64,000 nucleotides of DNA from Ulota crispa. Taxonomy: Eukaryota; Streptophyta; Bryopsida; Orthotrichales; Orthotrichaceae. Location of the stretch: assembly GCA_963920765.1 (NCBI GenBank), contig OY987242.1, positions 23,088,002 to 23,152,001 of the forward strand. Reading direction: 5' to 3'. The position numbers and the translations under genes were made by a program. Below, piece by piece: positions 703 to 63,230 of the stretch. The first letter of the stretch is position 1. Each line of letters starts with the position of its first letter. Under the pieces are notes generated by a model. The model worked only from the letters and a program-made list of their open reading frames with translations. It was not told the origin of the DNA and did not search any database.

Positions 703-3700
703 GTATTAAAATTTATCGTTCTCACCTGTCACCTCAGCTTGTGACCCCTTTTAACGTATTAGATTTTAGGGCAAATTTCATGGATACCCCTGGAATTCAC
801 AATATTTACATAGATACCCTTGCTTTTTTAGAAATTACACAAATACAATTTTCAGGCGTTTCTTTTGTTGTGCATGTCACTTCCCTTCTTCCTTTGTGTG
901 CATGTTTGTGTGCATGTTGCTTCTTTTTTGTTTCCATACATTCCTTTTTTAACATTGACCATGAAGGAAGTACGAGCAAAACAAATAAATGCCTAAATTT
1001 TTTGGTCCAAGGGTATTTATGCAATTTCTGAAGAAGCAGGGGTATCTATGCAAATATCGCAAACTTCAGGGGTATCCATGATTTTTTCCCTAGATTTTAC
1101 TTGAAGTGGCTATGCTAGTTGTTTATGTATCCTCACTCCTAATGCTTAGCAGTACCCAAATATTAAATGTTTTCGGAAACATACATTAGGAGCATGAATG
1201 TGAATCGAAATATTACTTTTAACTATATAACTCGTGAATAGTCTACCAGAATCTTGAGTATAAAATACTTGGCACATGTAGCAGTGTTTTAGCCACTTGA
1301 GCTAATCATGAAATTCTCTTTTGGGATCACCGATCGGGAGGATTTTGTTTGTTTGGCGTAGAAAAGTTTGTTAAATTGGCAACTTTCATGCCACAGATCT
1401 TGAGTTTAGGCCGTGAAAATGAACCGCACCAAAGTAACGCCGTATTGCGAAAGTATTGAATCTGATGTATAGAATGTACATCTTTTGACAACCACCTCAA
1501 GTAGAGTTAACAATTTGTTAGTCGAGGGTGGTGACCCCTGGCAAAAGAAACTAACTCTAGGTTCTAGGAAGGAACCCAATTTAGGTTTTAGTATTTGCAG
1601 CACGCCTTGTCATCCTGACTTGTGGAATTTGAGTAATGTTGATTTTGTTATTTTGGCTCAATTCAGAGCAAACATTCACCTGTACAAAGGTAGCTCAAAT
1701 GAATAAGGAAACACAACTAGTGTAGTTTACCCCTGCTTTGAAAAAGAGCCAATTGTCTTGGTTCTTTTGCCAATTTAACAAAAGTGACGCTGTGTATAAA
1801 GATTACTGGTTTAATAGGGCTAGGAGGTATGAGACAGTTGTAAGACCAACATATGGCAATAAAAGAAACAAGAGAGGGTTATGTTATGTTGGGAGCAGTC
1901 TCCATGACACATATAACTACTTTCAAGCTATTCACTTATTTATGGACTTTTCATGTCCTTGAACATTTGAAAACCTTCTCATGTTTTGTATGTATCTTCT
2001 ACTTCGGATATACTTCTCAGTTCTCAATATATTACGAACATCTTCAATATTTTGCAAGTAAGGTAGCAGCATCCATAATCGCTGTGTCCCCATGGCCGTC
2101 ACCTGACAGTGGCAGGGGCTAACCAATAAAAAAACAAATGATTGTGGGTGACTAAGTGATGGTTATGGATAATGAAGTGATGGTTGTGGGTGATTAGCAT
2201 GAGGTTTTGAGTATCCATCTCACTATTTAAGAACCAACAAACCTTGTTTTTAGCATCTGTTACACATGGTTCCTACAATTTCAGTGATTTTGGACTTGAA
2301 AAATCTTTGTGAACAAATGCTTGCGGTTGGAACCTTAAAATTGATGCCAATATTTTTGGTTTCCACTTCCTAACTTACAGTATTTTTTACAGAATTTTTT
2401 TCAAAGTTAGTCAATTGTTTTATCTACTCCAAAACCCTTATTTCCACGCTTATGAGTGCGCCGACCTTATCTCCCCCACCCTTTTGCAAACCAAAACATG
2501 TTTTAGGATTATGACAAGATGAAGCTGAGGGTTTTGGGGTGGGGGAGTAATGCAGGTTCCATTGTACATTGTAGCTCAGTGTAGTGGATCTATAACGGCA
2601 TCGTTCATGTTGCGGTGGATCCTCCATCCAGCGGCCTCGGAAGGGGCCACGTTACCAGCCGGCAGTGACGTCCAGTCATTTCTATTGGAGATAGCCATCA
2701 CGTTCATTCTCATGTTCGTCGTGGCCGCCGTCGCTACCGACACTCGAGCTGTAAGATTCACCAGTCTTAACTTTTGCTCATCCCTCATCACCAAGTTGAC
2801 GAGTTACTGCAGCTTTGTCAAGTTTTCTTTCATTTTCTGTTCATGCGCCAAAATTGTGACTTTTTCCTTCACAAAGGTGTAATTCTTATTCACAAACTAG
2901 GAACACTATAAATGTTAGGTTTTAGGGTTTGCTGCTTGGATTGTGCTAAAGGTATTGACATGTTGCCAATTTAACTGAGATTGACGTTAGAAGCCTTATG
3001 ACCCACAATGCTAAACTCTCAACGGACAACATAACAATACGTTGTTTTATGATCAGCCCTCTTAAAATTCAGCAAAATAGATGCCCAGTTTGTCTAAGTC
3101 AGGTTCCATATGAAGCCTCATCCAAGGGGTAAACTACAGTGAATCAAGTAGAGTATTATTTTCTAAGGTATCTTGAGAATGCTTATGGGAAAAATACCAA
3201 AAATTCCTAATTTTTTTTGTTAAAGTTTGGTGCCCATACTGCTCAGAATCAGATATCTTAGACGTTTGCATGATTTTGAGAGGGTCATGTTGCATGGCAT
3301 GTTAGGATTAAAAATATCTTATGCGTAGAATCTCAAAGCTCTAATTTAACCCCTAAATGCCTGAGGCACCAAAATTTAGTGTAAAAACCACCAGAATTTG
3401 GTGCCTTTGGCATTTAGGGGTTAAGCTCCACAAGAGAGAGGTATTTACTATTGTGTGCTACACGTGGTGTGATTCCAGTGTGGAGAATTGGCTGGAATTG
3501 CCGTTGGCTCAACAGTTGCTTTGAACGCTCTCATGGCCGGGTACGCCACTTCTCATGTTCCCATCTCCTGTTCTTCTTGTCTTGCTGAGACCAAAATTTT
3601 GTAAACATTTCTAAAAGAAAGGACCTTCATTGCGCACTCTCTGCATCAAGATGAGGAAGGAATCCCTGAACCGTTGTTGCAAAGATTCAGCTCATTTCTA

Positions 3701-5066: not shown

Positions 5067-5100
5067 CGCACCTTACTCTATTTTGAAAGTTTTTGCAGGT

Positions 5101-5680: not shown

Positions 5681-6295
5681 TATGGAAAGCTGAGGTTTGT
5701 TTTCATGCAAAATCGCCATTTGTCAGAAATAAACTGAAAAGTATTTTTATGCAAATTGAAAGGTGCAGAAATCTACTCCTCCAACTCCCGGGCGTGAGAA
5801 ATCTATAAAACAAAAAAGTGGAAAAGAGGAGCTTTGAACCCACCCTAAATTTTCATGATTGTATTGTTGTGAAAAGGAAGGGTGAAAATTTTGATTGAGA
5901 AAAAATGATTGAGGAAATCCCTCATTGCAACATCTGAAAAACAGGGGTATTGTGAGGGATACACATAAAACCGCATATTCTCATAATAATTTCATTCCTG
6001 GAAAAATTGTTTTGAAAATATGTTAGAAAATAAAATCATAACATTATTGAAGGAGGTCAAAAAGTTCTCCATCTTAAGTTTCCATACGTCACATATTCAG
6101 TTGTTGTTAATAATTCAAAAAACCAGCAATGCTGTCAAGGGTTGAAAATCTAATAAGCAGGTTGTCAATAAAGTAAGAATCAACATTCAAAAGTGAATAT
6201 AATTATGGAGAATGAAAGATTTTTTTTTTGACGTACAGAGCTGAAAGAAAGGCTTTTAGATTAAGTAATCGTAAGTAACACGTATGGTCCCTTAA

Positions 6296-7193
6296 CCCCT
6301 ACAGGTCCAAGCACTTTTTTCTGTAAAAGTCACTGAAAACAGCCAGTTTTGGGGAACGAGTAGAAAGTATCAAAAAAACGTTTTTTTTGGAAATCCAACC
6401 CTAAGATCTTGTCCAAGACTACATGAGGTATTTGTGGAAAAAAAATTGGCTCATTTTGAATGGAGAGAAGTATTATATGGACATCTGAAGTAATGAAGAG
6501 TAGTTACTTTCCTTGTTGCCATACAATTTAAGAGGTCTTTGACCACTCTTATAGCAAAAAAATTGCTCTACACAAAGTTGAGGATTAATTGCTCCATGTA
6601 GAAAACCAAGTTAGGTATGTGTGGGAGAATTTTTGAATGAATTGGAGGTGTATAACATACTTTAAAAAATCTTTCAATGCTTGAAGGTTACGAAATTTGC
6701 AAATACATGAGGCAAAATTGAGGCTTTACGTAACTTTTAGAAATCCGATCTAAACAATTAAAATTAAGGAATCTTAGCCCACTACAACTTGGAAAAAAAA
6801 GTGAAAAAAAAAATACAAAATCGCCCAAAAAATTAAAGTACCAAATCTTACAAGGGGCAGACAAGATGGAAGGTTGGGAGTCTCCCAAGACATGTCCACT
6901 CCCCTTTGCCAAGTGTCCATACCTTGTGCCCATAAGGGTTGACCCTCTTTAGAGTCAACACCCACTTACAAAAGAGAGACCATGCCCAAACTAGTGAACT
7001 ATCCTTTCTCCCCTAGTTTTGAAAAATTCTTGCTAAATTCTTCATCAAATGTCAAACTGAAGAAAAAATTTGATGCCCACATAAATTTTTGATATTCCCA
7101 CCTTCAATAAAAGTTTCAAGAAATCACACAAACTAGTTTAGCTATAGGTACATGTCCAAAATCCATTTGTCCCTTGATGAAACACTTGGGCAT
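6296..7193. mobile_element. TTAA-flanked element, subfamily A (copy 1)
   Basis: It starts TTAA-CCCCTACAGGTCCAAG. It aligns over its whole length with 49804-50752 and 62302-63230, including 'aaatccaacc ctaagatctt' near the left end and 'tgtccctt' near the right. Its right terminus stops at TTGGGCATT without the expected AGGGG, because the next element's TTAA begins there. Confidence 0.75.
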
Positions 7194-7197
7194 TTAA

Positions 7198-8006
7198 CCC
7201 CTAAAGCCCAACAGGTGTTGAAAAAAAAAAAATTGTAAAATTATAATGTTTGAAGTGAGAAAAATACCTTTTTTTATTCTTGCAAACAAGGTCAATAGAC
7301 TTTCAGCCCTCCTAAAGTAAATTTTTTGCTCTACACAAAATCAAGGTTTTTGACTGTTCACAAGTATATGATGTCATGTTCACTCATGAAATTTTTCAGA
7401 TGCAAATTTAGAGTCTAGCTTATCACCCTGAAATGCAAGGAGGTTAAGTGAATTGACAATACATTAGTCAATCTTTCATGATTTCTTGTGCTATAAAGAA
7501 GTATTTTATATGAAATTTGAACTGTGAGAAGTTAGAGGCAAACATTAGGAATATGCAAGAATTTTTTTCAAAAGCTTTGGATATATATATTGAAGGATAA
7601 TAGGGCCTAAAGTTAGAAGAAAATATTTTTTCTTAAAATTGCCCAAATATAGTTAACAAAGTTTGACTCCTCTTAGAATGTGATGTGAGAACTCAAATTT
7701 TTGTTATGTTTTTGACAATTGCATACAATATTTTATTAGTTACAAACATGCCAAGTTTCAGAAGTTAATGAGAGTTTGAGCATAAGATTCTCCAAAGATG
7801 CCCAAACTACCCAAGGTGCCCAAATTCTTTTGGGTAGCATAACTTTTTACTCAAGCATCCGATCAAATTTTTCTTTTTTTTCACACTAAGGTATTCATTG
7901 AGTGCACCTCATCTCCAAATTTTAAAAACATTTGCCAAAAATTGACTTCATAGGAACCTACCCAAACTTTCAACTAACTATTGAACGAACTTTTGTGATT
8001 TAGGGG
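7198..8006. mobile_element. TTAA-flanked element, subfamily B, inverted copy
   Basis: TTAA (7194-7197) CCCCTAAAGCCCAACAGG ... GTGATTTAGGGG followed by CTAA (a decayed TTAA). The interior is the reverse complement of 21319-22262 and 25754-26700. It abuts the previous element directly. Confidence 0.75.
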
Positions 8007-8158
8007 CTAAGGGTTTAATTTTTTATTTGTTTTTCTTTTCGTGGACTAAGATGCCACTCTCAATGTTCCCCTAAAATGTTGTTATATTTGTAAGGCCTTT
8101 ATTTATCTGTGAATATGATTGTTTTTTTTTAGTTGAGATCTATAGATGAGGCCTTCTT

Positions 8159-11686: not shown

Positions 11687-12079
11687 GTGGTTGTAGACAC
11701 AAACTTCAACGGGCAAAATAACATGAAATTTTGAGAATTCCCAAATATTCAAACTGGAGTTGAAACTAAATTTCATGAAATTTATTTTGTTGACTAGTCT
11801 CAAATTCAGATTTTTATTTTTATTATGGTTTAAATTCAAATCACAAGCCCTTAGCTACAAAGTTGCAAAAATACACAAGAAAGGTAATTTCTAGTGATCC
11901 ATTTTTACAAACTTTATTGCTTAAAAGAAATCTCCATGAAGCAATTTTCAATACCATTCAAGCATTTGCACTCAAGCAAATCCCAAAGCAAGGATTGGAT
12001 GAAAACCATTGCAATATCATGAGTGAACACTGTTCAGAAATCATCCAAACGTCACATAGTGGTGCTACCAAGAGGTTAA

Positions 12080-12936
12080 CCCCTAAAGGACTTGATCCAT
12101 TTTGAAATGGTCAAACTTCATGTCTAAGCTCAATTTTGTCTTTTAAAGTGTGTTCAAACAACAATTTTATATTTTTATTGCTTGAAATTATGAATGATAT
12201 ATCTTTGCAAGAAATTTCAATTTATTTCATCAAATTTTTTAATTGTTATCATGTTTTTTTCAAAATATGAACATAAATAAGTTAAAATAGCAAAATCAAA
12301 ACAAAATTACTTGAATTTTTTTCAAGAGGTACAAGCAGCATTAGAGACCGGTGTAAAAAAGTTTTAGTAGGTTATTTTATTTTTTACGCCCAAAACAACC
12401 ACAACAAAGCATTTAAAGTCAAATTTGACTATCTAACCAAGTTTATCCTTATATTTCACTAATTTATAAAATTTTGGTATTTTTTGCTAGAAGACACATT
12501 CACTTTCTATTTGTGTTAAATTTTTTGATAAATTTGATGGAAAACTTGAATTATTGAGATTTTTTAAAGAAAAATGTGGAAATAAAATAATATCAATTAG
12601 AATATATATTTAAAAAATATATAATATCTACCATAAATGAATGGTAGAATGAGAAACGTAGTTTTGTAGTTTGAATTTGAAATGCATTTAAAGAGTAGAA
12701 AATATGAATGAAAAACACACCATGTTATGTTGTTTGGATTCTAACACTTGGAGCTTTCAATGAAAATAACTCTTTCAATTTTTGACATTTTTCAAAAGAA
12801 TTAGATGGAATAGAAATAAAACTTGTCAAGCTTCATTTTATTAGTTTGAGCCACATGCCAAAAATTGATATTTTGAAAGTTACAATCAAGGTTGATCAAG
12901 GCGCATCCAAAAAGTGAATGAGCACACCTTTAAGGG
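12080..12936. mobile_element. TTAA-flanked element, unique subfamily
   Basis: TTAA (12076-12079) CCCCTAAAGGACTTGATC ... ACACCTTTAAGGG TTAA (12937-12940). The interior is AT-rich and I cannot align it well with the other copies. Its right TTAA also serves as the left TTAA of the next short element. Confidence 0.75.
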
Positions 12937-12940
12937 TTAA

Positions 12941-13109: not shown

Positions 13110-13338
13110 GTTGAAAAAACTAAAAGAGTACCTGTTGAAAATACATTAATAAATGGAAATAGATGGTCATAATAACTAAAGAGTGAGTATAATTCATGAT
13201 GCATAACACTAAACCTTGCAAGATACGTCCATCTGTACAATCAGATCCATGATAGACATTTACATTTAATAGTTTAAAGATTTGCCCCAAATGGCCATAC
13301 AAAGGATTGCCCACCCTAGAATTGACCACAAATGTTAA

Positions 13339-14335
13339 CCCCTAAATGCCCAAGGCACCAGATTCTAGTGTCCAAAAAATTTCAGGAAACTTTGAAACCC
13401 TATTGAAGTTACAGATTTTATTGTTTTGAGGGTTTTTTTTTTTTGGAAAAGTTGCACGTTGAATTAGCTTCACTATTCAAATTCAACTTACTCCATATCT
13501 TATTCCATTTGTTTTTGGTGGAAGGTTAACTACAAGCATACATTTTTTGTCATGAATAGTGTTGTGAATAGTGTCATGAATAGTGTTGTGAATAGTGTCA
13601 TGAATAGTATTGTGAATAGTGTCATGAATAGTGTTGTGAACAGTGTCATGAATAGTGTTGTGAATAGTGTCACAAAGCCTATGAGAACTTGCCACATTGA
13701 AAAGATGGGCATCAAGTTGAGCAAAAGGTGAAGATTTCCTTTGGGCACTCCCTTGGGCAATAAGGGCCTTTTTACCAAAATTTTGACATCTAACAAAATC
13801 TAAACGTGCTTTTGGACTAATTTCACTTGGAATGTCTTTGTTGTGGAAATTAGAATCCTTTCACCATTGAATTTTCTTTCATTCATAATGATTTTTGGTC
13901 AATAATTGAAGTTGAAAATTTCTTTGTAATAGACGGTTGCGTTTTGACAATTGCATTGCAGGCTCATTTGTGAAATTGTGGTTGTGGATTTGGAAGAGGG
14001 GCCATTGGTTTTGAAATAACAACAATAAAGACTAAAGCATCCTCAGTGGTTGTCTTCCAATTTTGTATCCAAAAGTTGCCAATTTGCATTAGAAGTTTTG
14101 GGTAGCTAAAAAAAAAGCAAAAGATTCCATACTCATCATCATTCAATCACAAACATCTTAAAATTCCCGCGGCCATTTTGGATTATTTTTGGATAGTGTC
14201 ATCTAGAAACCTTGAAGTTCAAAATTCAATAGTTACAATTTTGATTTGACGTTCAATAATGATCTTACAAAGACAATTCAAAAACTTCAAAACTACCTTC
14301 CAAAAACAAGAAAAACATCCTTGGGCATTTAGGGG
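13339..14335. mobile_element. TTAA-flanked element, 997 bp, with an internal minisatellite
   Basis: TTAA (13335-13338) CCCCTAAATGCCCAAGG ... CCTTGGGCATTTAGGGG TTAA (14336-14339). The inverted ends match perfectly over 17 bp. It contains the 12-bp repeat array at 13551-13672. ORFs inside are short or repeat-made. Confidence 0.85.
13551..13672. repeat. 12-bp minisatellite, ten units (24-bp dimers)
   Basis: Units alternate between ATGAATAGTGTT and GTGAATAGTGTC, ten in all with two or three base changes. On the minus strand it makes the repetitive peptide HNTIHDTIHNTIHD, which I do not regard as a protein. It lies inside a TTAA-flanked element. Confidence 0.85.
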
Positions 14336-14618
14336 TTAATGGGTTAAATAGAAAGTCTTTCAAGCAAAAAATAATAATGTTGAAGCCACAATGCTAAAAG
14401 GACAAGGACGTAGATTCTCATAAGGTGGCTACTTGTTAGTCATTGGAGTGACGTGCATCTCAAAATGCATGCAAGTAAGGGAAAAAAAATAGATAGAATC
14501 ATCCATGTGTACACTCTCATTCATAAGTTCAACTAATATTCAACTTTCATCCAAATTTTGACGCACTTGATGGTCCCATGAGAGGAGTAAGGTACGTAGC
14601 CAATGTCAAAATGAAGTA

Positions 14619-15244: not shown

Positions 15245-15721
15245 AACACCATATTAGTTAAATTGGAAAAAAAGTACATTTTGGGACTTCTGAAGGTTTT
15301 AGGTGATCACCTAAAATCAAGTTTGCATGTTTTTTTGGTACATGTGCCCTCACCTAAGAGGAGGAATTTGTGAGGGAAAAAGTCTTAGTGGCTCAAACTA
15401 AATCTGATACCTTCAAATTTAGTTTAAGGTAACTTTTTGGGTTTAACCCTTAACAGACTAAGCATGTTGTTGCGACCAGTACAATACGGGGTATTTTTCT
15501 TGTATTTGGAATGGATCCACACCTCTACTACATTTGAGACCAACAAAGAAGTTGGAGAATAGATCAAAAGCGGTTCTAGTGAACTACTTGAGATCCCAAA
15601 TTAAAACTTCTTACTAGTAGCAAATACCAATTATACGGCAGTGTATATATTATGCCCTATGGTCCTTTAAAGGTTAACAAAATGGTACCTCCGTTTTTCC
15701 TAATTTAACAAATATGGTGTT
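15245..15721. mobile_element. AACACCATATT-family element, target duplication TAAG, split by a TTAA element
   Basis: It begins AACACCATATTAGTTAAA and ends TTTAACAAATATGGTGTT. The 4-bp repeat TAAG flanks it at 15241-15244 and 15722-15725. The interior matches 41692-41968 (block GAGGAGGAATTTG, then AAATTTAG). The short TTAA element at 15447-15673 is inserted in it. Confidence 0.75.
15447..15673. mobile_element. Short TTAA-flanked element, 227 bp
   Basis: TTAA (15443-15446) CCCTTAACAGACTAAGC ... GGTCCTTTAAAGG TTAA (15674-15677). It lies within the AACACCATATT element, so it inserted later. It resembles the element at 53110 in length and in ends but not in interior. Confidence 0.65.
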
Positions 15722-16117: not shown

Positions 16118-17033
16118 CCTTAATGCTCATCCACATATTGGCAAACCTGAGGTTTTTTCGAGAGGATTTGGCACATTCACTCATCTTTTCACCCTACTTT
16201 TTTTTAGCTTGTGTTAAGGAGGACAAATTCAAAAATTAGGGAAGATTCACATGAAATTTTGACAAAAAAAAAACATCACTTAGAAGATGCGTTTTAGTTC
16301 TTTCTTTGAGCTTGTTTCCATGAATTATGGACGACCCATAGTGTGTTTCACGTCCCAACCTTCCAAGTGGCAATTCAACTAGCTTTGTTGTGTTATTAGT
16401 GGGCAACAAAGAAATGTTAAAAATATTTGCATAATACACAAGAATTACTTATTGCAAATTTCCGTTGTGCATTTGGACTTTTTCTTGTGGTAGATTTGAT
16501 TTTTTAGAGCAAAATTTGATTTTCTTGATTCGCAAATTTTTAAATGGATTTACGATTTAGGCATTCCTAAATCAACTAAGATTTGGAACTTGGGATAATA
16601 TGACGCTATAACTTTTGGTTTTCTATCTTTTCACTAATGATCATTTGTATGTTTACTGAAGTCTAAAACTTAGCATGAACTGCCCTTTAACTCCTAAGTG
16701 TCTTGGAGATATGATAAATGAATGGCCGAATCATCTCAAATGAGTGACATTCTATTTCTTTCCAATTTTGAGATAACCAATACAATGACTAATGTGTTTA
16801 TTTGAAATTGTTTGTTATTTATATAGTAGCTATTGAATCATTTAAGAGTTAAAAATACCATATTTTAATCTAACATGGCTTGTTTGCACTTTGTGTTGTC
16901 ACTCTTAATATTAAATGATTCTCACCCACCCTTTCCTTGCTTCTTCCTCTCCCTCCATCCTCTTGAATAAAAATAAAAAAACTTAAAGCTTGACACCCAA
17001 TGCTTTATAATAGAGAAATTTATATTTCTTAAG
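16118..17033. other. Spacer with a one-ended TTAA-type terminus
   Basis: TTAA-CTCCTAAGTGTCTTGG at 16687 looks like a single element end with no partner. At 16980-17033 a block ending 'cccaatgctttataat' recurs at about 21055. Otherwise nothing is recognised. Confidence 0.4.
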
Positions 17034-17037
17034 TTAA

Positions 17038-17933
17038 CCCCTAAAGCCCCAAAGTCCCCTTGGGGGATTTTTGGAATTTTGGGTAGGCTCAATTTTTTAC
17101 ATGATTTTTCGAAACTTTTTATGAGTATGTGGGAATGTATAAGGTTTGTGGGATGCAAAAAATCATGTGATTATGTCACACAGTTCACAAGTTATGAACT
17201 TCTTTTGGCTGAAAGCAACTTGAGGGGCAGTTTGGGCAAGGGAGAAAATATTGACTTTGAAGATGGGGGAGCAAGGAAGGGTTGCAACATGTTGCTCTAG
17301 TGGTCTCCGTTATTCCCCTTTCATTTCCAATTAGGAGGTCAGATTGGGCTTTAAGAGCTTCTAAATTTTGGAGTTTTTGAGGGTTTTAACTATTTTCTTT
17401 TTTGGCATTTGAAGTACATATTCATCTTCAAACACACCTTTTGGATTTCCCATATCTAAAAACATGTGGTGAGAAACTCCACTCAAAAATATCTTAGTGT
17501 ATTTGCAAAACTTGTCATATAGTGGCATTGCAATATTTTTTAGGATGTGTTCCGTGTTTTTGATTACCTTGAAAATTGGTGTACAAAGGTCTAACTTGAT
17601 TACCTATAAGACAAAATTACAACTTCAAGGTTTGTAATGCAAAAAAAATCAGCAATTGTCAGTTAAAGCCATCTGAAATTTTTGGGCATAATGGAAAAAA
17701 AAAAAAAAAAAAAAAACTTTTCCCTGCACATGCTCATAACTTTCAATCTGTATGGTCAAATATCATGAAACTTTTACCGCTTCTTCTTTTACAAGTTAAT
17801 TACAAGATCCTATGGTTAAATTTTCAATAAATTTTTTTTTTTTAAATTTTTGGTGAACACAGCAATAGGGGCAGTTTTGAGTGGTTTTTGGCAGAAAATG
17901 GCCTTCAGTTGGTAGTTTAGGGGTTAATAAAAT
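17038..17933. mobile_element. TTAA-flanked element, subfamily C (copy 1), 896 bp
   Basis: TTAA (17034-17037) CCCCTAAAGCCCCAAAGTCC ... TTGGTAGTTTAGGGG TTAA (17934-17937). It aligns from end to end in the same orientation with 60085-60971. It contains the subterminal motif AAGATCCTATGGTTAAATTT near the right end and a 21-base A-run. Confidence 0.85.
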
Positions 17934-18822: not shown

Positions 18823-18837
18823 TTAAAAAAAAAAAAA

Positions 18838-19383: not shown

Positions 19384-19433
19384 TTAAGGCAAATTAAATT
19401 ATGACCCCCATGTTTGGAAAGAATAGTTGGTTA

Positions 19434-21314: not shown

Positions 21315-21318
21315 TTAA

Positions 21319-22262: not shown

Positions 22263-22266
22263 TTAA

Positions 22267-25738: not shown

Positions 25739-25753
25739 ATATATGTTCTTTAA

Positions 25754-26700: not shown

Positions 26701-26704
26701 TTAA

Positions 26705-29662: not shown

Positions 29663-29666
29663 TTTA

Positions 29667-47183: not shown

Positions 47184-47295
47184 ATACAAAGTGAATAATA
47201 TTGATGTTTGACTACATGAACATTACATTTGCTTTTGAAGAGCCAACAAAGACAAGTTGGTGTAAGGGTATGCATTATATTCTAGTTGTTCTTAA

Positions 47296-48269
47296 CCTTT
47301 AAATGCTGGAGGCTGCTTTTGAACATCTAGGAATTTTTTCTAAATTGAACAAAAAGCCAATGTTTTGATAATATGTATCAGTTTTTTTAAAATTGTAACC
47401 GTCCAACTTTAAACTAGACATGTTACAGTTCACATGGAAAAGAAATACAACAATATCACTTATAGATTGAAAAATACAACAATATCACTTATAGATTGAA
47501 AGATTATAATAGGGGCAGTCACGGCACTTTGGAGAATGAAAAGAGAATGGAGATTAAGAATTGGATGAGTGAAAGTAGGAGCCAATAGGAGCTCACTCTT
47601 CGTGAAGATGCTATGACACCTCATTTGTGTGTGATGGAGAATTAAGAGTGGAGAATGGAGAATGATTTACTCAGAGAAAGGCAACAAGGCCAGCGATTGG
47701 AGGAGCAGAAAGAGCTAGGGTGAAAAGCAATTTATGAGCGGAGAAAAGAGCAAATCATGGTACAAAGTTTGCACTCTAACTCATTCTCCACTCCATTCTT
47801 CACCTTCAGTGGAGAAGAACAAGGCTATGAGAAGTTTTACGTGTGAAGCAGAACTTAAGCTCTAGTAGCCACTAGTAACAGGACATGTTCTCATTCTCCA
47901 CTTTCGAAGATGAAAGTGCCGTGACTACCCCTAATGTTTGATCATGAGGGTATTAAAACTGCAAAGACTACTTGGATTTTTTCCGTCCTCTTTTCACATG
48001 TCCAAACTAAACAATCAGTCACCAAAAAAAAAATGAGGTTAAGGGGCATAACATACATAACTCCAACCAATTTACGGCATTTCAAAATCTCTTCTACAAC
48101 TTTTTAAAATGAATTTTTAGTGTAGATGTTTCTCCAAGGTCTAGTGAATTTGAGGCTCATTTCCAAGAACTCTCAACACTACAAAAAGTCAAGATTGCAC
48201 TAAACACCCTTGCACAGAATCTTGAATAGAAAAATCTTGATTATTCATGGTGCCTCATGCATTTAGGGG
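47296..48269. mobile_element. TTAA-flanked element, subfamily D (inverted copy), with an inserted MITE
   Basis: TTAA (47292-47295) CCTTTAAATGCTGGAGGC ... CCTCATGCATTTAGGGG TTAA (48270-48273). Interior is the reverse of 59326-59968. A 30-bp stretch, ACAACAATATCACTTATAG and neighbours, is duplicated in tandem at 47446-47500. The MITE 47511-47932 sits inside. Confidence 0.85.
47511..47932. mobile_element. MITE with AGGGGCAGTCACGGCAC ends, 422 bp, nested
   Basis: AGGGGCAGTCACGGCACTTT at the left, AAAGTGCCGTGACTACCCCT at the right, AAT on both sides (TAAT is also possible). Subfamily D relatives read ATTATAATGTTTGA without it, giving the empty site. The interior repeats GGAGAATG-like units. Confidence 0.85.
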
Positions 48270-48273
48270 TTAA

Positions 48274-49487: not shown

Positions 49488-51335
49488 CCCGGAAGTAAAC
49501 ATATGTATTGCCCTCTTTTGGTAGTGAAAAACTTGCTTAAAACTTGCGTGATATAAAGTATAATTGACATTTTTTTTTGTGCATCACAATTTTGTAATTC
49601 TTATGTAATCCCAAACAAGCATACCAAATTTTAGTTTCAAAAAACCAGAACTCCATTTGTAATGATTTTTTTTGTATCAAATTCATGGTTTGTACATGAT
49701 AATTGATTGAAAAGCATTGGTGATGAATTTTTGAGATTTGATTGCATGGGTGTATAGGTAACATCCATATGCACATCCTCCATGCTAAAAAGAAGCCTCT
49801 TAACCCCTAAAGGCCCAAGCCCTTTTTTTTTATGAAAATCACTCAAAACTACCACTTTTGGGGGAGTGAGGAGAAATGTAATTTTTTTTTTTTTTTGGAA
49901 ATCCAACCGTAAGATCTTGCCCTAGACAATGGGAGGTACTTATGGAAAAAAAGTAGCTCATTCTAGAAGGTGAGGAGTGAGATATTCACATAAGAAGTGA
50001 AAAAATAAGTTTTTTTCACTACTGCCCAGAAATTTCAGAAGCCTTTGACGGCTCCTATATCAAAAAAATTGCTCTACGCAAAGTTGAGGTTTATTTTTCC
50101 CATGTAGAAGACCAAGTTAGGTAACTGTGGGAGAATTTTCAAATGAAATGGAGGTATGGATCATACTTTGTAAAATCCTGCAATGCCGTAAGGTCATGAA
50201 ATTTGCATATACACTAAGCAAAATTGGAGGACTTATGCAAAATTCAAAAACCCAAATTACTTTGATCCAAATGGTGAAAACCAAGGAATCTTAGTCTACT
50301 ACAACTTGCAAAAAAAAAAAAGTCAAAAAAAAAATACACAAAGAGCTTAAAGAAGTAAAGCAACAAGTTTTACAAGGGGAAAAGGAATGGAGGTTTAGGA
50401 GTCCCATACCTACCCGCAAACTAAAACTTCTCATAACTTTCATCTCATTTATTAGAATTGAATGATTCAAAGATGTCCATGTATATAAAAATCTAAAGAA
50501 CCAATTTCAGATTTTTATTTTAAAAAAATACAATCTTGATTTTTTTTTTGCTGCCCGCCCTCGCCCTTTTTCAAAAATTCATGCATAACTTCTCTAGTAA
50601 ATGTCAGAATGAAGAAAAAATTAGATGCCCACGTAGATCTTTGAATTGCACACCTTCAATAAAAGTTTCAAAAAATCACAAAAAGTAGTTTAGCTATAGG
50701 TACCTACCCAAAATCCCATTTGTCCCTCGAGGGGACAAGGGGCCTTTAGGGGTTAAGCAACAAAAATGTTATCTTCAATGGATTTAATCAATTTTAGTGT
50801 GACTTGTGATATGTCCAAAATTTTGTAAAATAGTTATTTTTATTTTTGAACTTTTTTCTCACCAAGTAAACATAATATCATGTTCAAAACTACAAACTTA
50901 GTCACAATGTATGAGTCAAATAGCAAAAATTGATTATCATGCAGAAATATCCGTTTTACAAAATTTTGGACATATCATAAGTCACACTAAATCCTTTGAA
51001 GATCACATTTTTGTTGCTTAAGAGGTTCTTTTTAGCATGGAGGATGTGCATATGGATGTTACCTATACACCCATGCAATCAAATCTCAAAAATTCATCAC
51101 CTATGCTTTTCAATCAATTGTCATGTACAAACCATGAATTTGATACAAAAAAAACCATTAAAAATGGAGTTTAGATTTTTTGAAACTAAAATTTGGTATG
51201 CTTGTTTGGGATTACATAAGAATTACAAAATTGTGATGCACAAAAAAAAATGTCAATTATACTTTATATCATGCAAGTTTTAGGCAAGTTTTTCACTGCC
51301 AAAAGAGGGCAGTACGTATGTTTACTTCCGGGTAC
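49485..51335. mobile_element. Long palindromic (foldback) element with arms of about 385 bp
   Basis: GTACCCGGAAGTAAACATAT at the left and the inverse ATGTTTACTTCCGGGTAC at the right. The arms stay alike for about 385 bp, interrupted only by the TTAA-flanked element 49804-50752. Arm content (AAGCATTGGTGATGAATTTT) is shared with 10293-10858. Two near-identical ORFs on the arms are by-products of the palindrome. Confidence 0.8.
49804..50752. mobile_element. TTAA-flanked element, subfamily A (copy 2), 949 bp, with internal empty-site proof
   Basis: TTAA (49800-49803) CCCCTAAAGGCCCAAGCCC ... GGGGCCTTTAGGGG TTAA (50753-50756). It lies in the left arm of the palindrome. The right arm reads, in reverse, CCTCTTAAGCAACAAA with one TTAA. 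Aligns with 6296-7193 and 62302-63230. Confidence 0.92.
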
Positions 51336-51418
51336 TGTACATACATGTTTGTGGGACTATGGTGGAGAATCTCAGCTTTTTTGTAAACAAGGTTAAAATG
51401 TAAAGATTTGTTCTTTAA

Positions 51419-52309
51419 CCCCAAAAGGACCAAAGTCCAGACAAAATGGATTTTGGACAGGCTTAGACTTTTGGAAATTTTAATTAGCTTTTTTGAACAC
51501 TTTCCTTGAAATACTACATGGGGTATAATTTCTAATGAAATCAATTTTACAATTCAGAATTTATGGAAGATTTTAGGAGAATTTTAGTTGAAGGTGCAGG
51601 TTATGCATGCCATTTTTGTTAATTTCTCCCTATGGCAACCGATGAAGGCATGATCCTTCATTGGTGAATGTGCAAAGCAATAGTGAACTAGGAACACACG
51701 TTATTATACCATATAAATACATTAATCTTTGATTTGCAATAGCTACTTGAGATTTGGTTTATTTTTTGTTTTTGATATTTATTTTCTTTATTTGTGGTTG
51801 TCAATAAATCTAAAATGTTTCAATTATCCCTTTGGGGTTTTTTTCCTTTCAAAAGTATCTTTTGAGAATTTGGTTTATAGAAAACCTCAATGTAGTGTGA
51901 ATTTCAAGCACATATTTACAATACAAGACCTTGTAGGATATGTTCCATGTCTTTGTTGGTCATGAAAACCTTTGGAAATATGCCTAATAGATTTTAAAAC
52001 AAGTTGAAAATATTTGTGCAGCACCCAAAGTGCAAAAAAAGTTTATTACATTCGATCAAAGGGACTTGAAAATTTTGAGCAGAGATAAAAAATACTTATG
52101 TACTAACTTTGAATGATCATATCTCTCAATCCATTATCTGTGCGGTCAATCCCCACAAAACTTTCACCATGTCTTCTTGCAATGATTTGTGATAAAATTA
52201 TATAGTTAGATATGTAGAAAATAGAAAACAACATGTTCTTGAGGTCAAATGACTAGATATGGCATTTTTGAGTATTTTTTGAGAAGAAAATGGGCTTGGG
52301 CTTGTAGGA
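51419..52309. mobile_element. TTAA-flanked element, subfamily related to C/E, right end decayed
   Basis: TTAA (51415-51418) CCCCAAAAGGACCAAAGTCC at the left; the right end near GGGCTTGTAGGAATTA is a worn TTTAGGGGTTAA. Contains the subterminal TTATATAGTTAGATATG motif. The end position is approximate. Confidence 0.6.
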
Positions 52310-52642
52310 ATTATTTTGGAGGTGGTCAATCTATCCACAACTACAAATTCTCTGATACCAAGGCCACACATGCCAAAACATCCGCTTTGAAATAAATGAA
52401 GAAGTAACTTGTATTTTTGGAAAATTGAAAGATAATCATTTTTTCAAGGTTTTATCTATCATGTGATATAAATAACATCTCCATTGTACTAGCCTAGGGC
52501 AAGAGATTTGAGATGCCAAAGTTTGTGAACACTAAAAAATCACTAGTTGTGAGCAAACTAGAAAATGAGCATAAAATATTGGAAAATATATTTTTCTACA
52601 AAGAAGTAAACGCCACTCTTGTTTTAAAAGTCAATTTATTTT

Positions 52643-53105: not shown

Positions 53106-53109
53106 TTAA

Positions 53110-53338
53110 CCCCTGAGCGATCAGAGTTATTTTAGGGTTTAGGAGAAAATGGGGGGTTTAACGGCCACCACAACTTGGAAAATTACATCCATAAAAAGTG
53201 ACCGTAGGATTTGAAAAAGGACTACCTTCTCTATTGGTGGGGACCAGCCATGACTATTTTCACCATACAAATTAAGAGAAAAAAAGAGATAAAGTTGTGG
53301 GCCCCAATGACAAGATCTTGTCGCTGGGGCGCTTAAGG
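53110..53338. mobile_element. Short TTAA-flanked element, 229 bp
   Basis: TTAA (53106-53109) CCCCTGAGCGATCAGAG ... GGGGCGCTTAAGGG TTAA (53339-53342). More GC-rich than the long copies. Includes AAGATCTTGTCGCTGG near the right end. Confidence 0.75.
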
Positions 53339-53342
53339 GTTA

Positions 53343-54128
53343 AGAGGATATTTGATGTAGGCCTATTTATCTAAAATATGGTATTTAAAATGACCATATT
53401 TTTTTATAAAAAGCTACGTGGATCATATTTTTGGTACCCTATTTATTTTTATGAATTCGTTCATTTGGTTTTTAAATGGGGCTAATTTATATATAAATTT
53501 GGTTTGTCCAATTTTAGACTATCTCCATTATTCATCAAAAATATATATTTCTTTTTATTACATATACATACATGGTATTCACCATGAAACCAATAACAAG
53601 CATATGAATTAAAGGGCTATCGTCTAAGTGGACGTTTTTATTAACAAGTTTTTATTATTTCTCAACTCTATGGCATGTATTTAAAAAAAGCTAACATGGA
53701 GAGCAACAAAAAACACTAATTTTTTTTACAACCCCTATTTGTGAAGGCTAGTTTATTAATAAAAAATCTTATTACCTAATGCTTTTACATACCCTAATTT
53801 ATATATACTAAAATACATAATATTCATGAATCCTATAGTAGCTCTACTTATTGTATAATATTTTTGTCCTTTGAATTAAATGGACCCTATTTTTTAACTC
53901 ACGTGGTTCCTAAAACATAGGCTAGTGATCTCCTTGAGGAGCCAGATAGCGAGGAAGCTAAATCTTTACACAAAACCAAGAACTATTGTAGCATAAATTA
54001 AGTTACATGCCCCCCCCATGTGGCCAATGGTGAATTATAAGATAACTTTGCCAAGGTAAGGCATCCCAACTGTTAAAGCAACCTAAAGGCATTATTTGGT
54101 ATACACCAAATAGTACAATTAGGCTACC
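53343..54128. other. AT-rich spacer plus dispersed repeat
   Basis: 53343-53920 has no recognised content; 53930-54128 belongs to the dispersed repeat described at 52905. Confidence 0.4.
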
Positions 54129-54132
54129 TTAA

Positions 54133-55045
54133 CCCCTAAAATTCTTTTGTGTTCAAAGGCCCAAAATTGCTTCAAAATACTAGTCCCCAAACTAGGGTCA
54201 AAATATTCATTGAAACTTACTTTTTCACAAATCCAACCATAGGATCCTTTGGTTGACTTGCACAACTACATTGCCCCAAAATTTCAGAATGAATATCTCC
54301 ACCAATTGCAAGATCAAAGTGCCCAAATTTCAAAATGTAGGCTTTTCTAGTCCTTCTAGAAGGTGAAGTTTTGTTTTTCAAACTTTTTAGAGAAAAACCC
54401 GTATGTTGTATTTCTTGTGCAATTTTTGCAATATGTTGGAAAATGGGTTGAAAGCATATGTAAAAAATATGAACCAAAAAAAACTTTGGATTCATTTTTA
54501 CAAAAGTTGTAAAGTGAAAGGTACTAATGAATGAAAGGTGTAACTTATATGCTAATAAGTTTTGGAAGAATTTGAAAATTGTTAATCCCAATGGTGAGAA
54601 TGCTCTAACAAACAATTAGTAACTTTAATTTTAATTTTAATTTGAAAAATTTGAAAGTTGAGAGTAAAAAGATAACTTTATATTTTTTTCTACCCTCTTC
54701 CTACCTTCATTGCCCGCAAAATAAAACTCCTTTTAACTCTTACCTCATTATTTAGAATTGAGTGATTCAATTTTTTTTGAGTAGGTATCATTCTATACAA
54801 TTATATAAAAATAAAAAGTAAAAATTTAGAATATATTTTTTGTTGCCCGGTTTGACATTGAAGTTGAAAAAACCTTATAACTTTTGCATTACTTATTGGA
54901 ATGACATGAAATAAAGCTTCACATGTAGATTATGATGAGTAGCATCCATCCTAAAAATTTCATGAAAAATTTCCAAATTATGAAATCAATAGAGCCTGCC
55001 CAAGTTCTCATAATGCCCAAAGTGGGCTCCTTGGGCCTTTAGGGG
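54133..55045. mobile_element. TTAA-flanked element, subfamily F (copy 1), 913 bp
   Basis: TTAA (54129-54132) CCCCTAAAATTCTTTTGTG ... TTGGGCCTTTAGGGG TTAA (55046-55049). It is nearly identical, in opposite orientation, to 55921-57098 apart from a MITE in that copy. A minus-strand ORF (54217-54615, 132 codons) differs by only two residues from its counterpart there. Confidence 0.88.
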
Positions 55046-55381
55046 TTAACTTGCCAAAAAATGTTCACCAAATAGTGCAATTAGGTTGCCCCCTACTAAT
55101 TTCTTGACATTTCACATTATTTTTAGATTTACCAAGACTATATTAACTTTTGTCAATAGTTATTGTGATAAACAACAAAGGGAGCAAGCAAAGGGTTGGC
55201 TCAACAATAAGTGTCAAAAGTAGGGAGCAAGGAAGCTAGAACTTTATGTAGAACCAAGAATTAATGTAGCATAAAGAGGATTGCATGTCCCTCCATGTGG
55301 CCAAGGGTAAATCATGAGGTAACTTTGCCAAGGCAAGGCAACCTAAAGGTGCTCTTTGGTGTACACCAAATAGTGCAATTA

Positions 55382-55916: not shown

Positions 55917-55920
55917 TTAA

Positions 55921-57098
55921 CCCCTAAAGGACCAAGGAGCCCACTTTGGAGGTAAGTTATTTTGTGAGTGTAGAATGGTGAGCCTATGAGTGGTGAGCCA
56001 AGATTTTGTGAGCAAGAATCAATTTTGAGCTCAAAATTAGTGAAAAAACTTAAAAAACAACAATTTTTCAAGAGATGAATGTTTATAGTGTGCAATTATA
56101 AGATCCTATGTACACATTTCTAGATGAAATTTAATATTTTGACAAAAAAATTACACTTACGGCTTACAGCTCATGAATCCGTGCTCACGAAATAGCATTC
56201 CCCGCCCACTTTGGGCATTATGAGAACTTGGGCAGGCTCTATTGATTTCATAATTTGGAAATTTTTCATGAAATTTTTAGGATGGATGCTACTCATCATA
56301 ATCTACATGTGAAGCTTTATTTCATGTCATTCCAATAAGTAATGCAAAAGTTATAAGGTTTTTTCAACTTCAATGTCAAACCGGGCAACAAAAAATATAT
56401 TCTAAATTTTTACTTTTTATTTTTATATAATTGTATAGAATGATACCTACTCAAAAAAAAATTGAATCACTCAATTCTAAATAATGAGGTAAGAGTTAAA
56501 AGGAGTTTTATTTTGTGGGCAATGAAGGTAGGAAGAGGGTAGAAAAAAATATAAAGTTATCTTTTTACTCTCAACTTTCAAATTTTTCAAATTAAAATTA
56601 AAATTAAAGTTACTAATTGTTTGTTAGAGCATTCTCACCATTGGGATTAACAATTTTCAAATTCTTCCAAAACTTATTAGCATATAAGTTACACCTTTCA
56701 TTCATTAGTACCTTTCACTTTACAACTTTTGTAAAAATGAATCCAAAGTTTTTTTTGGTTCATATTTTTTACATATGCTTTCAACCCATTTTCCAACATA
56801 TTGCAAAAATTGCACAAGAAATACAACATACGGGTTTTCCTCTAAAAAGTTTGAAAAACAAAACTTCACCTTCTAGAAGGACTAGAAAAGCCTACATTTT
56901 GAAATTTGGGCACTTTGATCTTGCAATTGGTGGGGATATTCATTCTGAAATTTTGGGGCAATGTAGTTGTGCAAGTCAACCAAAGGATCCTACGGTTGGA
57001 TTTGTGAAAAAGTAAGTTTCAATGAATATTTTGACCCTAGTTTAGGGACGAGTATTTTGAAGCAGTTTTGAGCATCTAAACACGAAAGAATTTTAGGG
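55921..57098. mobile_element. TTAA-flanked element, subfamily F (copy 2, inverted), with an inserted MITE
   Basis: TTAA (55917-55920) CCCCTAAAGGACCAAGGAG ... AGAATTTTAGGG TTAA (57099-57102). The MITE at 55950-56204 interrupts it. The plus-strand ORF 56617-57015 mirrors the one in copy 1. The core is about 99% like copy 1 by eye, but the terminal 60 bases are more diverged. Confidence 0.88.
55950..56204. mobile_element. MITE with GTTATTTTGTGAG ends (copy 2), 10-bp target duplication
   Basis: CCCACTTTGG is repeated at 55940-55949 and 56205-56214. Subfamily F copy 1 has it once, so the duplication is real. A 9-10 bp repeat points to a MULE. Same family as 4795-5066. Confidence 0.85.
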
Positions 57099-57179
57099 TT
57101 AAATACTCAGGATTTTTCCATCATAGCCCCCCCACAGAGACGAGTGTGGCTGTGTGCAGTAACTTAATCCGAGCCAACT

Positions 57180-59320: not shown

Positions 59321-59325
59321 ATTAA

Positions 59326-59968
59326 CCCCTAAATGCCCAAGGCACCCAATTTGGGTGTTTGCAAAATTTTGAAGACAAATCAAATCTTATCAGATTATTA
59401 TGTGTGGTATTGTCTTTTGAATACAAGTTTGTTTTGAAGTCTATTTTGAACATCAAAAATCTGATTTTGAAAATGAATGTTCTTGATTTTTTTATTTAAG
59501 ATTTTGTACAAGGGGTCCATTGCAATCTTGAGTTTTCTAGTGTTGGAAGATCTTGAAAATGAGCCTCACATACACTAGAGCTTGGAGAAAAATCCACATT
59601 AGAAATCCATTTAAAAAAATACAAGAGTAGATTTTGAAAACCGTAAATTGGTTGAGGTTAAACATGTAATGACCTTAAACCTCATATTTTTTTGATGACC
59701 AAATTTTTAGATTTGACACGTGAAATAAGGATTAGAAGACTTCACGTCACTTTTATAGTTTTAACACCCTCATGTTCAAACATTATAATCTTTCAAACTA
59801 TAAGTGATATTGTTGTGTTTTCTTTTTCCATATAATCTCTAACATGTCAAGTTAAAATTTGTACGGTTACAGCTTAAAAAAACTTGATGAGATTTATGAA
59901 AAGGTTGGTTGATTGTTCACTTTCCTGAAAATGCCAAGAAGTTCAGAAAGGCCTTGGGCATTTAGAGG
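59326..59968. mobile_element. TTAA-flanked element, subfamily D (copy 3), 643 bp
   Basis: TTAA (59322-59325) CCCCTAAATGCCCAAGGC ... GCCTTGGGCATTTAGAGG TTAA (59969-59972). This is the complete member used to align 18838-19383 and 47296-48269. Confidence 0.88.
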
Positions 59969-60084
59969 TTAAAAAAAATGTTTCTTATAAGAGTTTTTGT
60001 TTTTGTTTTTTTGTGATGTTTATGTTCTACTTGTGGTGAGTATTGAAGATTTTGTTGTATTTAGTATTATTATTATTATTTTAA

Positions 60085-60971
60085 CCCCTAAAGGATCAAA
60101 GTCCCTTTGGGGGACTTTCGGGATTTTGGGTAGGCTTGTGTGACCTCAATTTTTTACGTGATTTTTTGAAACTTTCTATGAGTGTGTAGGAATGTATAAG
60201 GTTTGTGGGATGCAAAAAATCATGTGATTGTGTCACAAGGTTCAAAAGTTATAGGCTATTTTTGGCCAAAAGCAATTTGCAGGGCAACTTGGGCAAGGGA
60301 GAAAATATTGACTTTGGAGGAGGAGGAGCAAGGAGGGGTTGCCACATGTTGCTTTGGTGGTCCCCATTATTTTATCATTGCCCCCTTTCATTTCCAATTA
60401 GGAGGTCAAATTGGACTTTGGGAGCTTCTAAATTTTAGAGATTTTGAGTTTTTTAACTTTTTTTTTTTTTACATTTGAAGTACATGTTCATCTTCAAACA
60501 CATCGTTTGGATTTTCCATATCTAAAAACATGTGGTGGGAAACTTCACTCAAAAATGTCATAGTGTACTTGCAAAACTTGTCATATAGTGGCATTGCAAT
60601 ATTTTTTAACATGTGTTTTGTGTTTTTGATTGCCTTGAAAGTTAGTGTACAAAGGATTAACTTGATTACCTATAAGATAAAATTACAAATTCATGGTCTA
60701 TAGTGCAAAAAAATCAGCAAATGGTGGTCAAAGCCATCTGAAATTTTTGGGCACAGTGGAAAAAATAATCTTTTCCCTTTAGATGCTCATAACTTTCAAT
60801 CCGTACGGTTAAATGTCATAAAATTTTCAGGAATTCTTTTCCTACAAGTGCATTACAAAATCCTATGGTTAGATTTTCAAGAACAGCATTTTGTTGAAAT
60901 TTTTTATGAACACAGAAATAGAGGCAGTTTTGAGTGGTTTTTGACAGAAAATCGCCTTGGTAGTTTAGGGA
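60085..60971. mobile_element. TTAA-flanked element, subfamily C (copy 2), 887 bp
   Basis: TTAA (60081-60084) CCCCTAAAGGATCAAAGTCC ... GGTAGTTTAGGGA TTAA (60972-60975). Whole-length match to 17038-17933. ORFs 60203-60478 and 60205-60438 correspond to 17079-17300 of copy 1 but differ in frame integrity, so I do not call a gene. Confidence 0.87.
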
Positions 60972-61235
60972 TTAATCTAGAAGCCTTTTGAAGGGATTTT
61001 TTTGGGAATTTAGAAGTTGCATTTTTAGGTGAAAGACACCTATATTATTTTAATCACAGAATAGTTGTAGGGGAATTTTTTTGAGATATGTTTTGTAGGA
61101 ACATTAGAATGCAAATAATAGAGTTCAACAACGTTTGAAAGAATGAAAAAGTCAATTCTTTCTAACTTTGTCTTGCAACCTCAAGGTTTGAACCTTCTTT
61201 GTTTAGATTTTTAACATCATTTGATTTAGTTCTAA

Positions 61236-61335: not shown

Positions 61336-61339
61336 TTAA

Positions 61340-62297: not shown

Positions 62298-62301
62298 TAA
62301 A

Positions 62302-63230
62302 CTCCTAAAGGACTGAGCCTTTTTTTCAAGTTAAAGTGATTGATAACTGCCACTTCTAGGGGAATGAGTAGAAAAGTAGGAAAATTTGTTTTTATTTAAA
62401 TCTGGCTCCAGGATCTTGCTCTAGACTGCCAGAAGACTTGTGGGAAAAAATAAAGTCAATTTAGATGGAGAGGAGTGAGATATTTACAGTTAAAGTGCAA
62501 AAAAAAAGTTTTTTTCCCTTATGCCTAAAATTTCAGAAGTCTTTGACCACTCTTATATCAAAAAAATTACTCTATGCAAAGTTGAGGTTTATTTTTCCCA
62601 TGTAGGAGATCAAGTTAGGTATATGTGGGAGAATTTTCAAATCAATTGGAACTATACAATACATGGGAAAAAAATAGTAAGTAAAATGAAGTAGAGAATG
62701 AGTCAAAACACTAAATTGTTAAGAATTTAATTATTGAAATGAAAAATGCAAATCTCAATGGTGTAATGTTGCAATAAACAATATACTTCTTTTGGTTTAG
62801 GTTTTTTTCCAAAATAATGAAAATTGAGTAAAATAAAGGACTTCAAAGTTTATTTTAGAGTAGAGAATCCCTAACTACCTGCAAACAAAAACTCCTCATA
62901 ACTTTCATCTCATTGATTGAAATTGAATGGTTCAAAGCTACTCACGTATAAAAAAATCTAAAGAACCAATTTCAAAAAACAAAATTCAAAAAATGTAATT
63001 TTTAAAGAAATTTTTGGGCTGCCCGGATGGGCAGTCCTCCCCAAATTTTCATAAAATCATGCATAATTTCTTTGTCGAATGTCGAAATGAAGAAAAAATT
63101 AGATGTCCACAGAGATCTTTGAATTCCCCACCTACAATAAAAGTTTCAAAACATTGCACAAAACAGTTTAACCATAGGTACATGCCCAAAATCCATTTGT
63201 CCCCCAAACGGACAAACAATCCTTTAGGGG
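62302..63230. mobile_element. TTAA-flanked element, subfamily A (copy 3), 929 bp
   Basis: TAAA-CTCCTAAAGGACTGAGCC at the left (worn), AACAATCCTTTAGGGG TTAA (63231-63234) at the right. Same orientation and layout as 6296 and 49804. Confidence 0.85.

What the first reader, a model, noticed from the sequence alone, without database searches (positions are those of the whole stretch)
3350..63230. A plant MITE superfamily bounded by TTAA: CCCCTAAA...TTTAGGGG, over twenty copies in 64 kb
Seen: at least 20 elements (71 bp to about 1 kb, six or more subfamilies with unrelated-looking interiors) share CCCCTAAA/TTTAGGGG ends, and almost all lie between TTAA and TTAA. I estimate about 16-17 kb in total. 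Known: TTAA duplications are made by piggyBac, Kolobok and Sola3 transposases, and standard plant MITE families use 2, 3, 8 or 9-11 bp. Inference: a TTAA-targeting transposase, so far unassigned, has amplified heavily in this plant genome.
Basis: partly seen in the sequence, partly recalled or inferred. Interest (0 to 1): 0.78.

Follow-up and report, generated by a model that had tools for sequence, protein, structure and literature searches.

The report
Moss piggyBac transposons' tiny internal-deletion copies
Many of the short repeats with CCCCTAAA ends are cut-down, non-coding copies of piggyBac jumping genes, best known from animals, which have multiplied in this moss genome by inserting at TTAA.

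Summary
I elements (19 firm, 3 doubtful; 17,400 bp, 27% of the window) ending in CCCCTAAA/TTTAGGGG; 39 of 44 ends are TTAA. Genome-wide, TTAACCCCTAAA occurs 30,972 times against 77 for the reversed pattern. Of 3,051 copies of a 17-bp end, 2,590 follow TTAA. Copies of one host repeat show the empty site with a single TTAA, and at least two different elements sit at that TTAA.

The transposase can be assigned: piggyBac. The genome gives 120 matches to the piggyBac domain, a lower bound. Of 10 such loci read with long flanks, 3 are bounded by the same TIR on both sides. Window elements are internal-deletion copies of these: 13335-14339 keeps about 135 bp of one end and 554 bp of the other. Eleven of 22 window elements align directly with piggyBac elements; the masked rest of the window does not. 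A LEAFY exon places the plant near Physcomitrium, so a moss.

This is a large set of piggyBac MITEs in a moss: a new member of a known kind. Nine elements have no traced parent; activity is untested.

The parts
3346..3424 (.). 71-bp element between TTAA and TTAA; almost only the two ends
   Evidence: both ends 84-86% to the 5' end of PB64 over 36-37 bp
6292..7197 (-). MITE of the PB31/PB18 lineage; right terminus degenerate, TTAA shared with the next element
   Evidence: 441 bp (72%) of PB31 3' end and 106 bp (76%) of its 5' region
7194..8010 (.). MITE, family of 25750-26704 and 21315-22266; right flank TTAG; no piggyBac parent traced
   Evidence: 81% over 784 bp to 25750-26704
12076..12940 (.). 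Element TTAACCCCTAAAGG...CCTTTAAGGGTTAA; one strong and one weak end; no parent traced
13335..14339 (+). MITE: internal-deletion copy of the piggyBac element PB64/PB15, TTAA both sides
   Evidence: 1-137 = PB64 1-135 (74%); 453-1005 = PB64 5193-5746 (83.6%)
15443..15677 (.). Doubtful short element, TTAA both sides
   Evidence: end scores 13.4/19.2; shuffle maxima 10.5-20.8
16687..16852 (.). Doubtful short element; probably chance
   Evidence: end scores 8.1/9.3, within shuffle range
17034..17927 (+). MITE, sister of 60081-60975; PB31-type 5' end, PB63/PB31-type 3' end
   Evidence: 82.8% to 60081-60975; 1-85 = PB31 1-95 (69%); 771-894 = PB31 8138-8255 (68%)
18383..19387 (.). Old element (TCAA/TTAA), related to 59322-59972 and 47292-48273
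   Evidence: 76.7% over 511 bp to 59322-59972
21315..22266 (.). MITE, family of 25750-26704; no parent traced
   Evidence: 76% over 651 bp to 25750-26704
25750..26704 (.). MITE, TTAA both sides; a copy also lies in L063 417-1342; no parent traced
   Evidence: 78% over 961 bp to L063
27303..28231 (+). MITE, sister of 28741-29666
   Evidence: 84.8% over 930 bp to 28741-29666; 84 bp (71%) to PB31 5' subterminal region
28741..29666 (+). MITE with PB31-type 5' end; right flank TAAA
   Evidence: 1-96 = PB31 1-95 (76%); 694-827 to PB63 3' region (71%)
47292..48273 (.). MITE related to 59322-59972, TTAA both sides
   Evidence: 77% over 317 and 188 bp
49800..50756 (-). MITE: internal-deletion copy of PB31/PB18; empty site in the other arm of its host repeat, 50945-51170
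   Evidence: 514 bp (78%) = PB31 3' end to its last base; 191 bp (80%) = PB31 5' end from base 1; empty sites
51415..52316 (+). MITE with PB63-type 3' half; right terminus decayed
   Evidence: 532 bp (70%) to PB63 3' region
53106..53343 (.). Doubtful short element, TTAA both sides
   Evidence: end scores 12.5/18.6
54129..55049 (.). MITE, inverted near-identical partner of 55917-57102; no parent traced
   Evidence: 98.4% over 900 bp
55917..57102 (.). MITE, inverted partner of 54129-55049; right end TTTTAGGGTTAA (one G fewer); only a 21-base terminal match to PB31
59322..59972 (.). 651-bp MITE of a multi-copy family (92% to L042)
   Evidence: 5' 49 bp 86% to PB64 end; family identities
60081..60975 (+). 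MITE with PB31-type 5' end and PB63/PB31-type 3' end
   Evidence: 1-95 = PB31 1-95 (76%); 617-895 = PB63 3' end (69%)
62298..63234 (-). MITE: internal-deletion copy of PB31/PB18; left flank TAAA
   Evidence: 377 bp (74%) PB31 3' end and 193 bp (77%) PB31 5' end

Best explanation
The elements are MITEs of the piggyBac superfamily in a moss. Longer elements of about 5.5-8 kb encode a piggyBac-type transposase between TTAACCCCTAAA...TTTAGGGGTTAA ends (shown, in copies with stops). Internal deletions left short copies, 0.07-1.2 kb in this window, that keep the ends and some subterminal sequence (shown for several window elements, inferred for the rest). Transposases of several related lineages bound these ends and moved the short copies by cut and paste into TTAA, duplicating it (insertion at TTAA shown; cross-mobilisation, excision and present activity inferred).
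For: 120 matches to PF13843 in this genome, all over the cut-off, best E 1.3e-73. Three of 10 piggyBac loci read with long flanks have the MITE TIR on both sides: PB64 (19-bp perfect inverted repeat), PB15, PB31. PB64 and PB15, on different contigs, align with each other up to both ends. Window MITEs match the first and last bases of PB64 and PB31 with the middle missing. The masked rest of the window gives no match to those termini at 1e-4. The tree put L019 and L027 beside the linked L018 and L031; their 3' flanks then proved to carry the same subterminal MITE sequence, as did L018 and L031 and no other of the 30 loci tested with 1.5-kb flanks (L004, L005 and L015 reach it only beyond 1.5 kb). 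The only solved structures matched are piggyBat and 6x67 (T. ni piggyBac, name recalled), with the three D motifs aligned. Empty sites carry a single TTAA.
Against: Of the 10 long-flank loci, 5 (L062, L065, L066, L067, L068) have no such pair of ends around the gene; four of these show at most one weak inward end-like score (14-19) on a side. Two (L018, L063) show only the 3' end. PB31 has a second possible left end 80 bp further out; PB15's right flank is TCAA. Nine window elements, three of them doubtful calls, have no traced parent. The node joining both groups of linked transposases has support 0.571, though each group has 1.000. The cysteine-rich tail match is not significant. The 14 control genomes are not described, so that control is weak.
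Confidence: 0.94

Rival explanations
1. Another TTAA transposase (Kolobok or Sola3) mobilises some or all of these MITEs.
For: Elements such as 25750-26704, 54129-55049 and 12076-12940 have no traced piggyBac parent.
Against: They share the CCCCTAAA terminus with piggyBac-linked families, and several window elements match piggyBac elements at both ends. No Kolobok or Sola3 model was searched.
Confidence: 0.05
2. The MITEs only happen to flank old piggyBac genes, MITEs being dense here.
For: The window has 20 exact 12-base ends in 64 kb, so ends near any gene are common; L062, L063 and L067 have separate MITEs nearby.
Against: PB64 and PB15 align with each other up to both ends at different loci. 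Only about 135-190 bp at one end and 370-555 bp at the other match the MITEs, not whole MITEs. Six piggyBac loci share homologous 3' subterminal sequence or ends within their lineage, and L063 shares the last 54-60 bp.
Confidence: 0.03
3. A Stowaway-like transposase with TA duplication and a strict T-TA-A preference.
For: An empty TTAA site cannot by itself tell a TA from a TTAA duplication (reasoning).
Against: The parent elements encode piggyBac transposase; TTAA precedes 2,590 of 3,051 ends.
Confidence: 0.01

Closest known systems
piggyBac superfamily (T. ni piggyBac, piggyBat)
   Same: DDE_Tnp_1_7 transposase, TTAA target, TIR starting CCC (the TIR and TSD rule for animals from passages of PMC10813416)
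   Different: Host is a moss; the three bounded elements are 5.5-8.3 kb long; transposase only distantly similar to the solved animal ones
piggyBac MITEs
   Same: Short non-coding copies that keep the ends of a coding element
   Different: About 31,000 exact 12-base ends in one plant genome. A review lists PiggyBac among angiosperm MITE superfamilies (PMC10004981, passage); an assembly of the fern Ceratopteris annotates 1,230 PiggyBac copies (PMC6890710, passage)
Tourist (PIF/Harbinger) and Stowaway (Tc1/mariner) plant MITEs
   Same: Short, abundant, inverted ends, A+T-rich target
   Different: 3-bp TAA/TTA or 2-bp TA duplications (PMC10004981, passage) and other transposases
Tc1-like elements of Physcomitrella
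   Same: An animal-type DNA transposon amplified in a moss (PMC4054914, abstract start and passages)
   Different: Other superfamily

Membership tests
piggyBac superfamily | Transposase of the piggyBac (DDE_Tnp_1_7, PF13843) family inside the element | tested here: met
   L064 ORF pieces 2.6e-59 and 3.7e-7; 120 matches genome-wide
piggyBac superfamily | Catalytic aspartate motifs of piggyBac (D268, D346, D447; numbers recalled) | tested here: met
   ITVDE, LMDNFFSS and GVDVADQ of L064 align with the motifs of 6x67 and piggyBat; by pattern, not all of the 31 copies keep every motif
piggyBac superfamily | C-terminal cysteine-rich domain | tested here: inconclusive
   The L064 tail is cysteine-rich, but the match to piggyBat there is not significant
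piggyBac superfamily | TTAA target duplication | tested here: met
   2,590 of 3,051 ends; empty sites with one TTAA in one host repeat; TA duplication not excluded by these alone
piggyBac superfamily | TIR beginning CCC | tested here: met
   CCCCTAAA
piggyBac superfamily | Seamless excision | not testable with these tools
   needs an assay
MITE | Short non-coding copy sharing termini with a coding element | tested here: met
   13335-14339, 49800-50756 and 62298-63234 against PB64 and PB31
Kolobok, Sola3 | Their own transposase families | not tested
   no model of either was searched
PIF/Harbinger (Tourist) | 3-bp TTA/TAA duplication | tested here: not met
   TTAA on both sides and a single TTAA in empty sites

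The most novel reading that the evidence does not exclude
In this moss lineage several diverged piggyBac transposase lineages (about 43-62% amino-acid identity between them) share one end sequence and have jointly cross-mobilised probably more than ten thousand MITEs, making piggyBac a leading force shaping a land-plant genome, a role better known from animals.
Probability: 0.45. Interest if true: 0.55.

Novelty: new member of a known kind. Interest (0 to 1): 0.45.

Why it matters
PiggyBac is studied mainly in animals (general knowledge); in the papers seen here, land-plant piggyBac appears in surveys and annotation tables. In this moss it is the source of much of a MITE set covering about a quarter of the window, with parents, deletion derivatives and an empty site identifiable. 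The 12-base end could let annotators classify a large share of this genome's repeats, and nested TTAA insertions offer insertion histories.

Tried and rejected
A search of 1.5-kb flanks of 30 piggyBac loci found no end pair, because the ends lie 1.6-2.5 kb beyond the domain; longer flanks solved this. One search was the same script as 11 and failed on a file name. Of 99 joined-flank queries against held sequence (every inward pair of ends within 9 kb, so many are not true elements), three had matches across the junction: window 49800-50756 (used), L052 363-1084 (set aside: the uninserted copies differ by a 10-17-base indel at the junction) and L054 (an artefact of adjacent ends). The genome search with joined flanks of further elements was uninformative for all but the first: only 40 of 3,669 candidates were scored and all listed rows concern one host repeat. 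Pfam gave nothing at 0.001 for five window ORFs. PMC10619864: one of its two 'piggybac' hits is 'expression piggybacking', the other was not shown. A 2025 review of plant MITEs holds neither 'piggyBac' nor 'TTAA' (PMC12595863, term counts). Paper searches listed no paper that I recognised as describing piggyBac MITEs in mosses; I saw listings, and passages of the papers cited, not whole texts.

Full report
Setting. The window is G000:C1:23088002-23152001 of an unnamed 274.8-Mb assembly in 157 contigs. A LEAFY exon from the same genome is 104 of 106 residues identical to the chain 4bhk (a LEAFY homologue; Physcomitrium by recall), at 245 bits against 109-174 for the four other LEAFY-type chains found. 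I therefore treat the host as a moss. Only five reference sequences stand behind this, and the species is not known.

Observation. TTAACCCCTAAA and TTTAGGGGTTAA occur 11 and 9 times in the window. All 25 CCCCTAAA octamers, both strands, were tabulated: 20 follow TTAA. I paired ends into 22 elements, 17,400 bp in all; three are doubtful. Genome-wide there are 30,972 exact 12-mers against 77 for the reversed pattern. The longer end CCCCTAAAKGCCCAAGG occurs 3,051 times, 2,590 of them after TTAA, against 0 for the reversed control. From these totals the window is about 2.8 times denser in exact ends than the genome mean.

Target site. Element 49800-50756 sits in one arm of a palindromic host repeat (arms 49481-49794 and 51026-51339). 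The other arm in the window is an empty site, CCTCTTAAGCAAC, with one TTAA (one base missing just before CCTC, and a 10-base gap further off). In a genome search with joined flanks, 74 of 80 listed rows run across the junction, 31 of them with no net indel. The 74 include the window's own second arm, and many loci appear twice, once for each arm. The other six rows stop or start at the TTAA. I fetched nine places. Six are empty: five with TTAA, one with TTGA. Three carry CCCCTAAA-type ends at that same TTAA: L077 holds a different, 87-bp element with both ends; of L084 and L085 only one end was read, so they may be separate insertions or diverged copies of one. This fits a TTAA duplication; a TA duplication with fixed outer T and A cannot be told apart by empty sites alone.

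Transposase. Pfam PF13843 gives 120 matches in about 116 places, a lower bound, and none in 14 control genomes whose nature is not stated. Ten loci were read with longer flanks. Three have the TIR on both sides: PB64 (L064 867-6612, 5,746 bp), PB15 (5,456 bp; right flank TCAA) and PB31 (8,255 bp; a second possible left end lies 80 bp further out). Two show the 3' end only (L018, L063). Five have no pair of ends around the gene (L062, L065, L066, L067, L068), at most single weak end-like scores. PB64 and PB15 align with each other at the first 303/284 bp, in the gene, and over the last 670 bp, so the borders belong to the element. PB64's reading frame carries the piggyBac domain in two pieces separated by one in-frame stop. 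The only solved relatives found are piggyBat (1.7e-16) and 6x67 (3e-13; T. ni piggyBac by recall).

Link to the MITEs. 13335-14339 is PB64 with the middle lost; 49800-50756 and 62298-63234 match PB31 at both termini; 6292-7197 does so with a decayed right end. In all, 11 of 22 window elements have a direct match to a piggyBac element at E up to 1e-4 longer than 25 bp: 3346, 6292, 13335, 17034, 27303, 28741, 49800, 51415, 59322, 60081 and 62298. Those of 3346, 27303 and 59322 are short (30-84 bp). Element 55917 has only a 21-base terminal match. Two more (18383, 47292) are linked through 59322. Nine remain without a traced parent: 7194, 12076, 15443, 16687, 21315, 25750, 53106, 54129, 55917. 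Masking the 22 elements leaves no match of the piggyBac termini in the window. A tree of 31 domain sequences put L004, L018, L019, L027 and L031 together (support 1.000) and L005 with L015 (1.000); the join of the two groups has support 0.571. The flanks of L019 and L027, not compared with the MITEs before, then showed the same subterminal MITE sequence at about the same distance.

Age and activity. Nine copies of the 650-bp family, the window copy included, are 70-92% identical to each other; six copies of the 13335 family are 85-93%. A seventh sequence in that second comparison (L040b, 44-46%) is another family and is left out of the range. The loci other than the window came from the first 30 places listed on one contig, not from a random sample. 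The pair 54129/55917 is 98.4% identical, which may reflect a recent insertion or a local duplication. Most of the transposase matches hold stops. Present activity is untested.

Literature. A survey lists PiggyBac among superfamilies found in all groups studied, land plants included (PMC4438587, passages); a fern assembly annotates 1,230 copies (PMC6890710, passage); a review lists PiggyBac among angiosperm MITE superfamilies (PMC10004981, passage). Animal piggyBac TIRs begin mostly with CCC and the TSD is mostly TTAA (PMC10813416, passages). The library is open-access only. In the ten searches named in Tried and rejected I saw no account of piggyBac MITEs in mosses.

Verdict. The transposase is piggyBac. 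The kind is known; the scale in a moss is the interest.

Noticed in passing
37198-37609 and 40548-40953: A different 400-bp inverted-repeat element starting GGGAATTGATATGTGCACA; copies also lie in the loci L064, L018 and L031, and those of L064 and L018 have, by eye, an 8-bp duplication.
   Followed up: partly
49481-49794 and 51026-51339: Arms of a multi-copy palindromic host repeat whose TTAA carries CCCCTAAA elements in four of the copies read (window, L077, L084, L085).
   Followed up: yes
54129-55049 and 55917-57102: Two inverted copies of one MITE family, 98.4% identical, 0.9 kb apart; each holds a 132-aa open frame that was not searched.
   Followed up: partly
L062, L065, L066, L067, L068: piggyBac-domain loci without a pair of CCCCTAAA ends around the gene; L065 has an uninterrupted 476-aa frame. 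Other lineages or host-adopted genes are possible.
   Followed up: no
L063 about 4872-5471: Tandem repeat of a 52-bp unit in a piggyBac locus, between gene and 3' end.
   Followed up: no
35467-35940: A 157-aa frame (minus strand) that, from recall, resembles plant PIF/Harbinger transposase; Pfam gave no match at 0.001.
   Followed up: partly
element ends: The end contains CCCTAAA, the plant telomere unit (recalled); probably coincidence.
   Followed up: no
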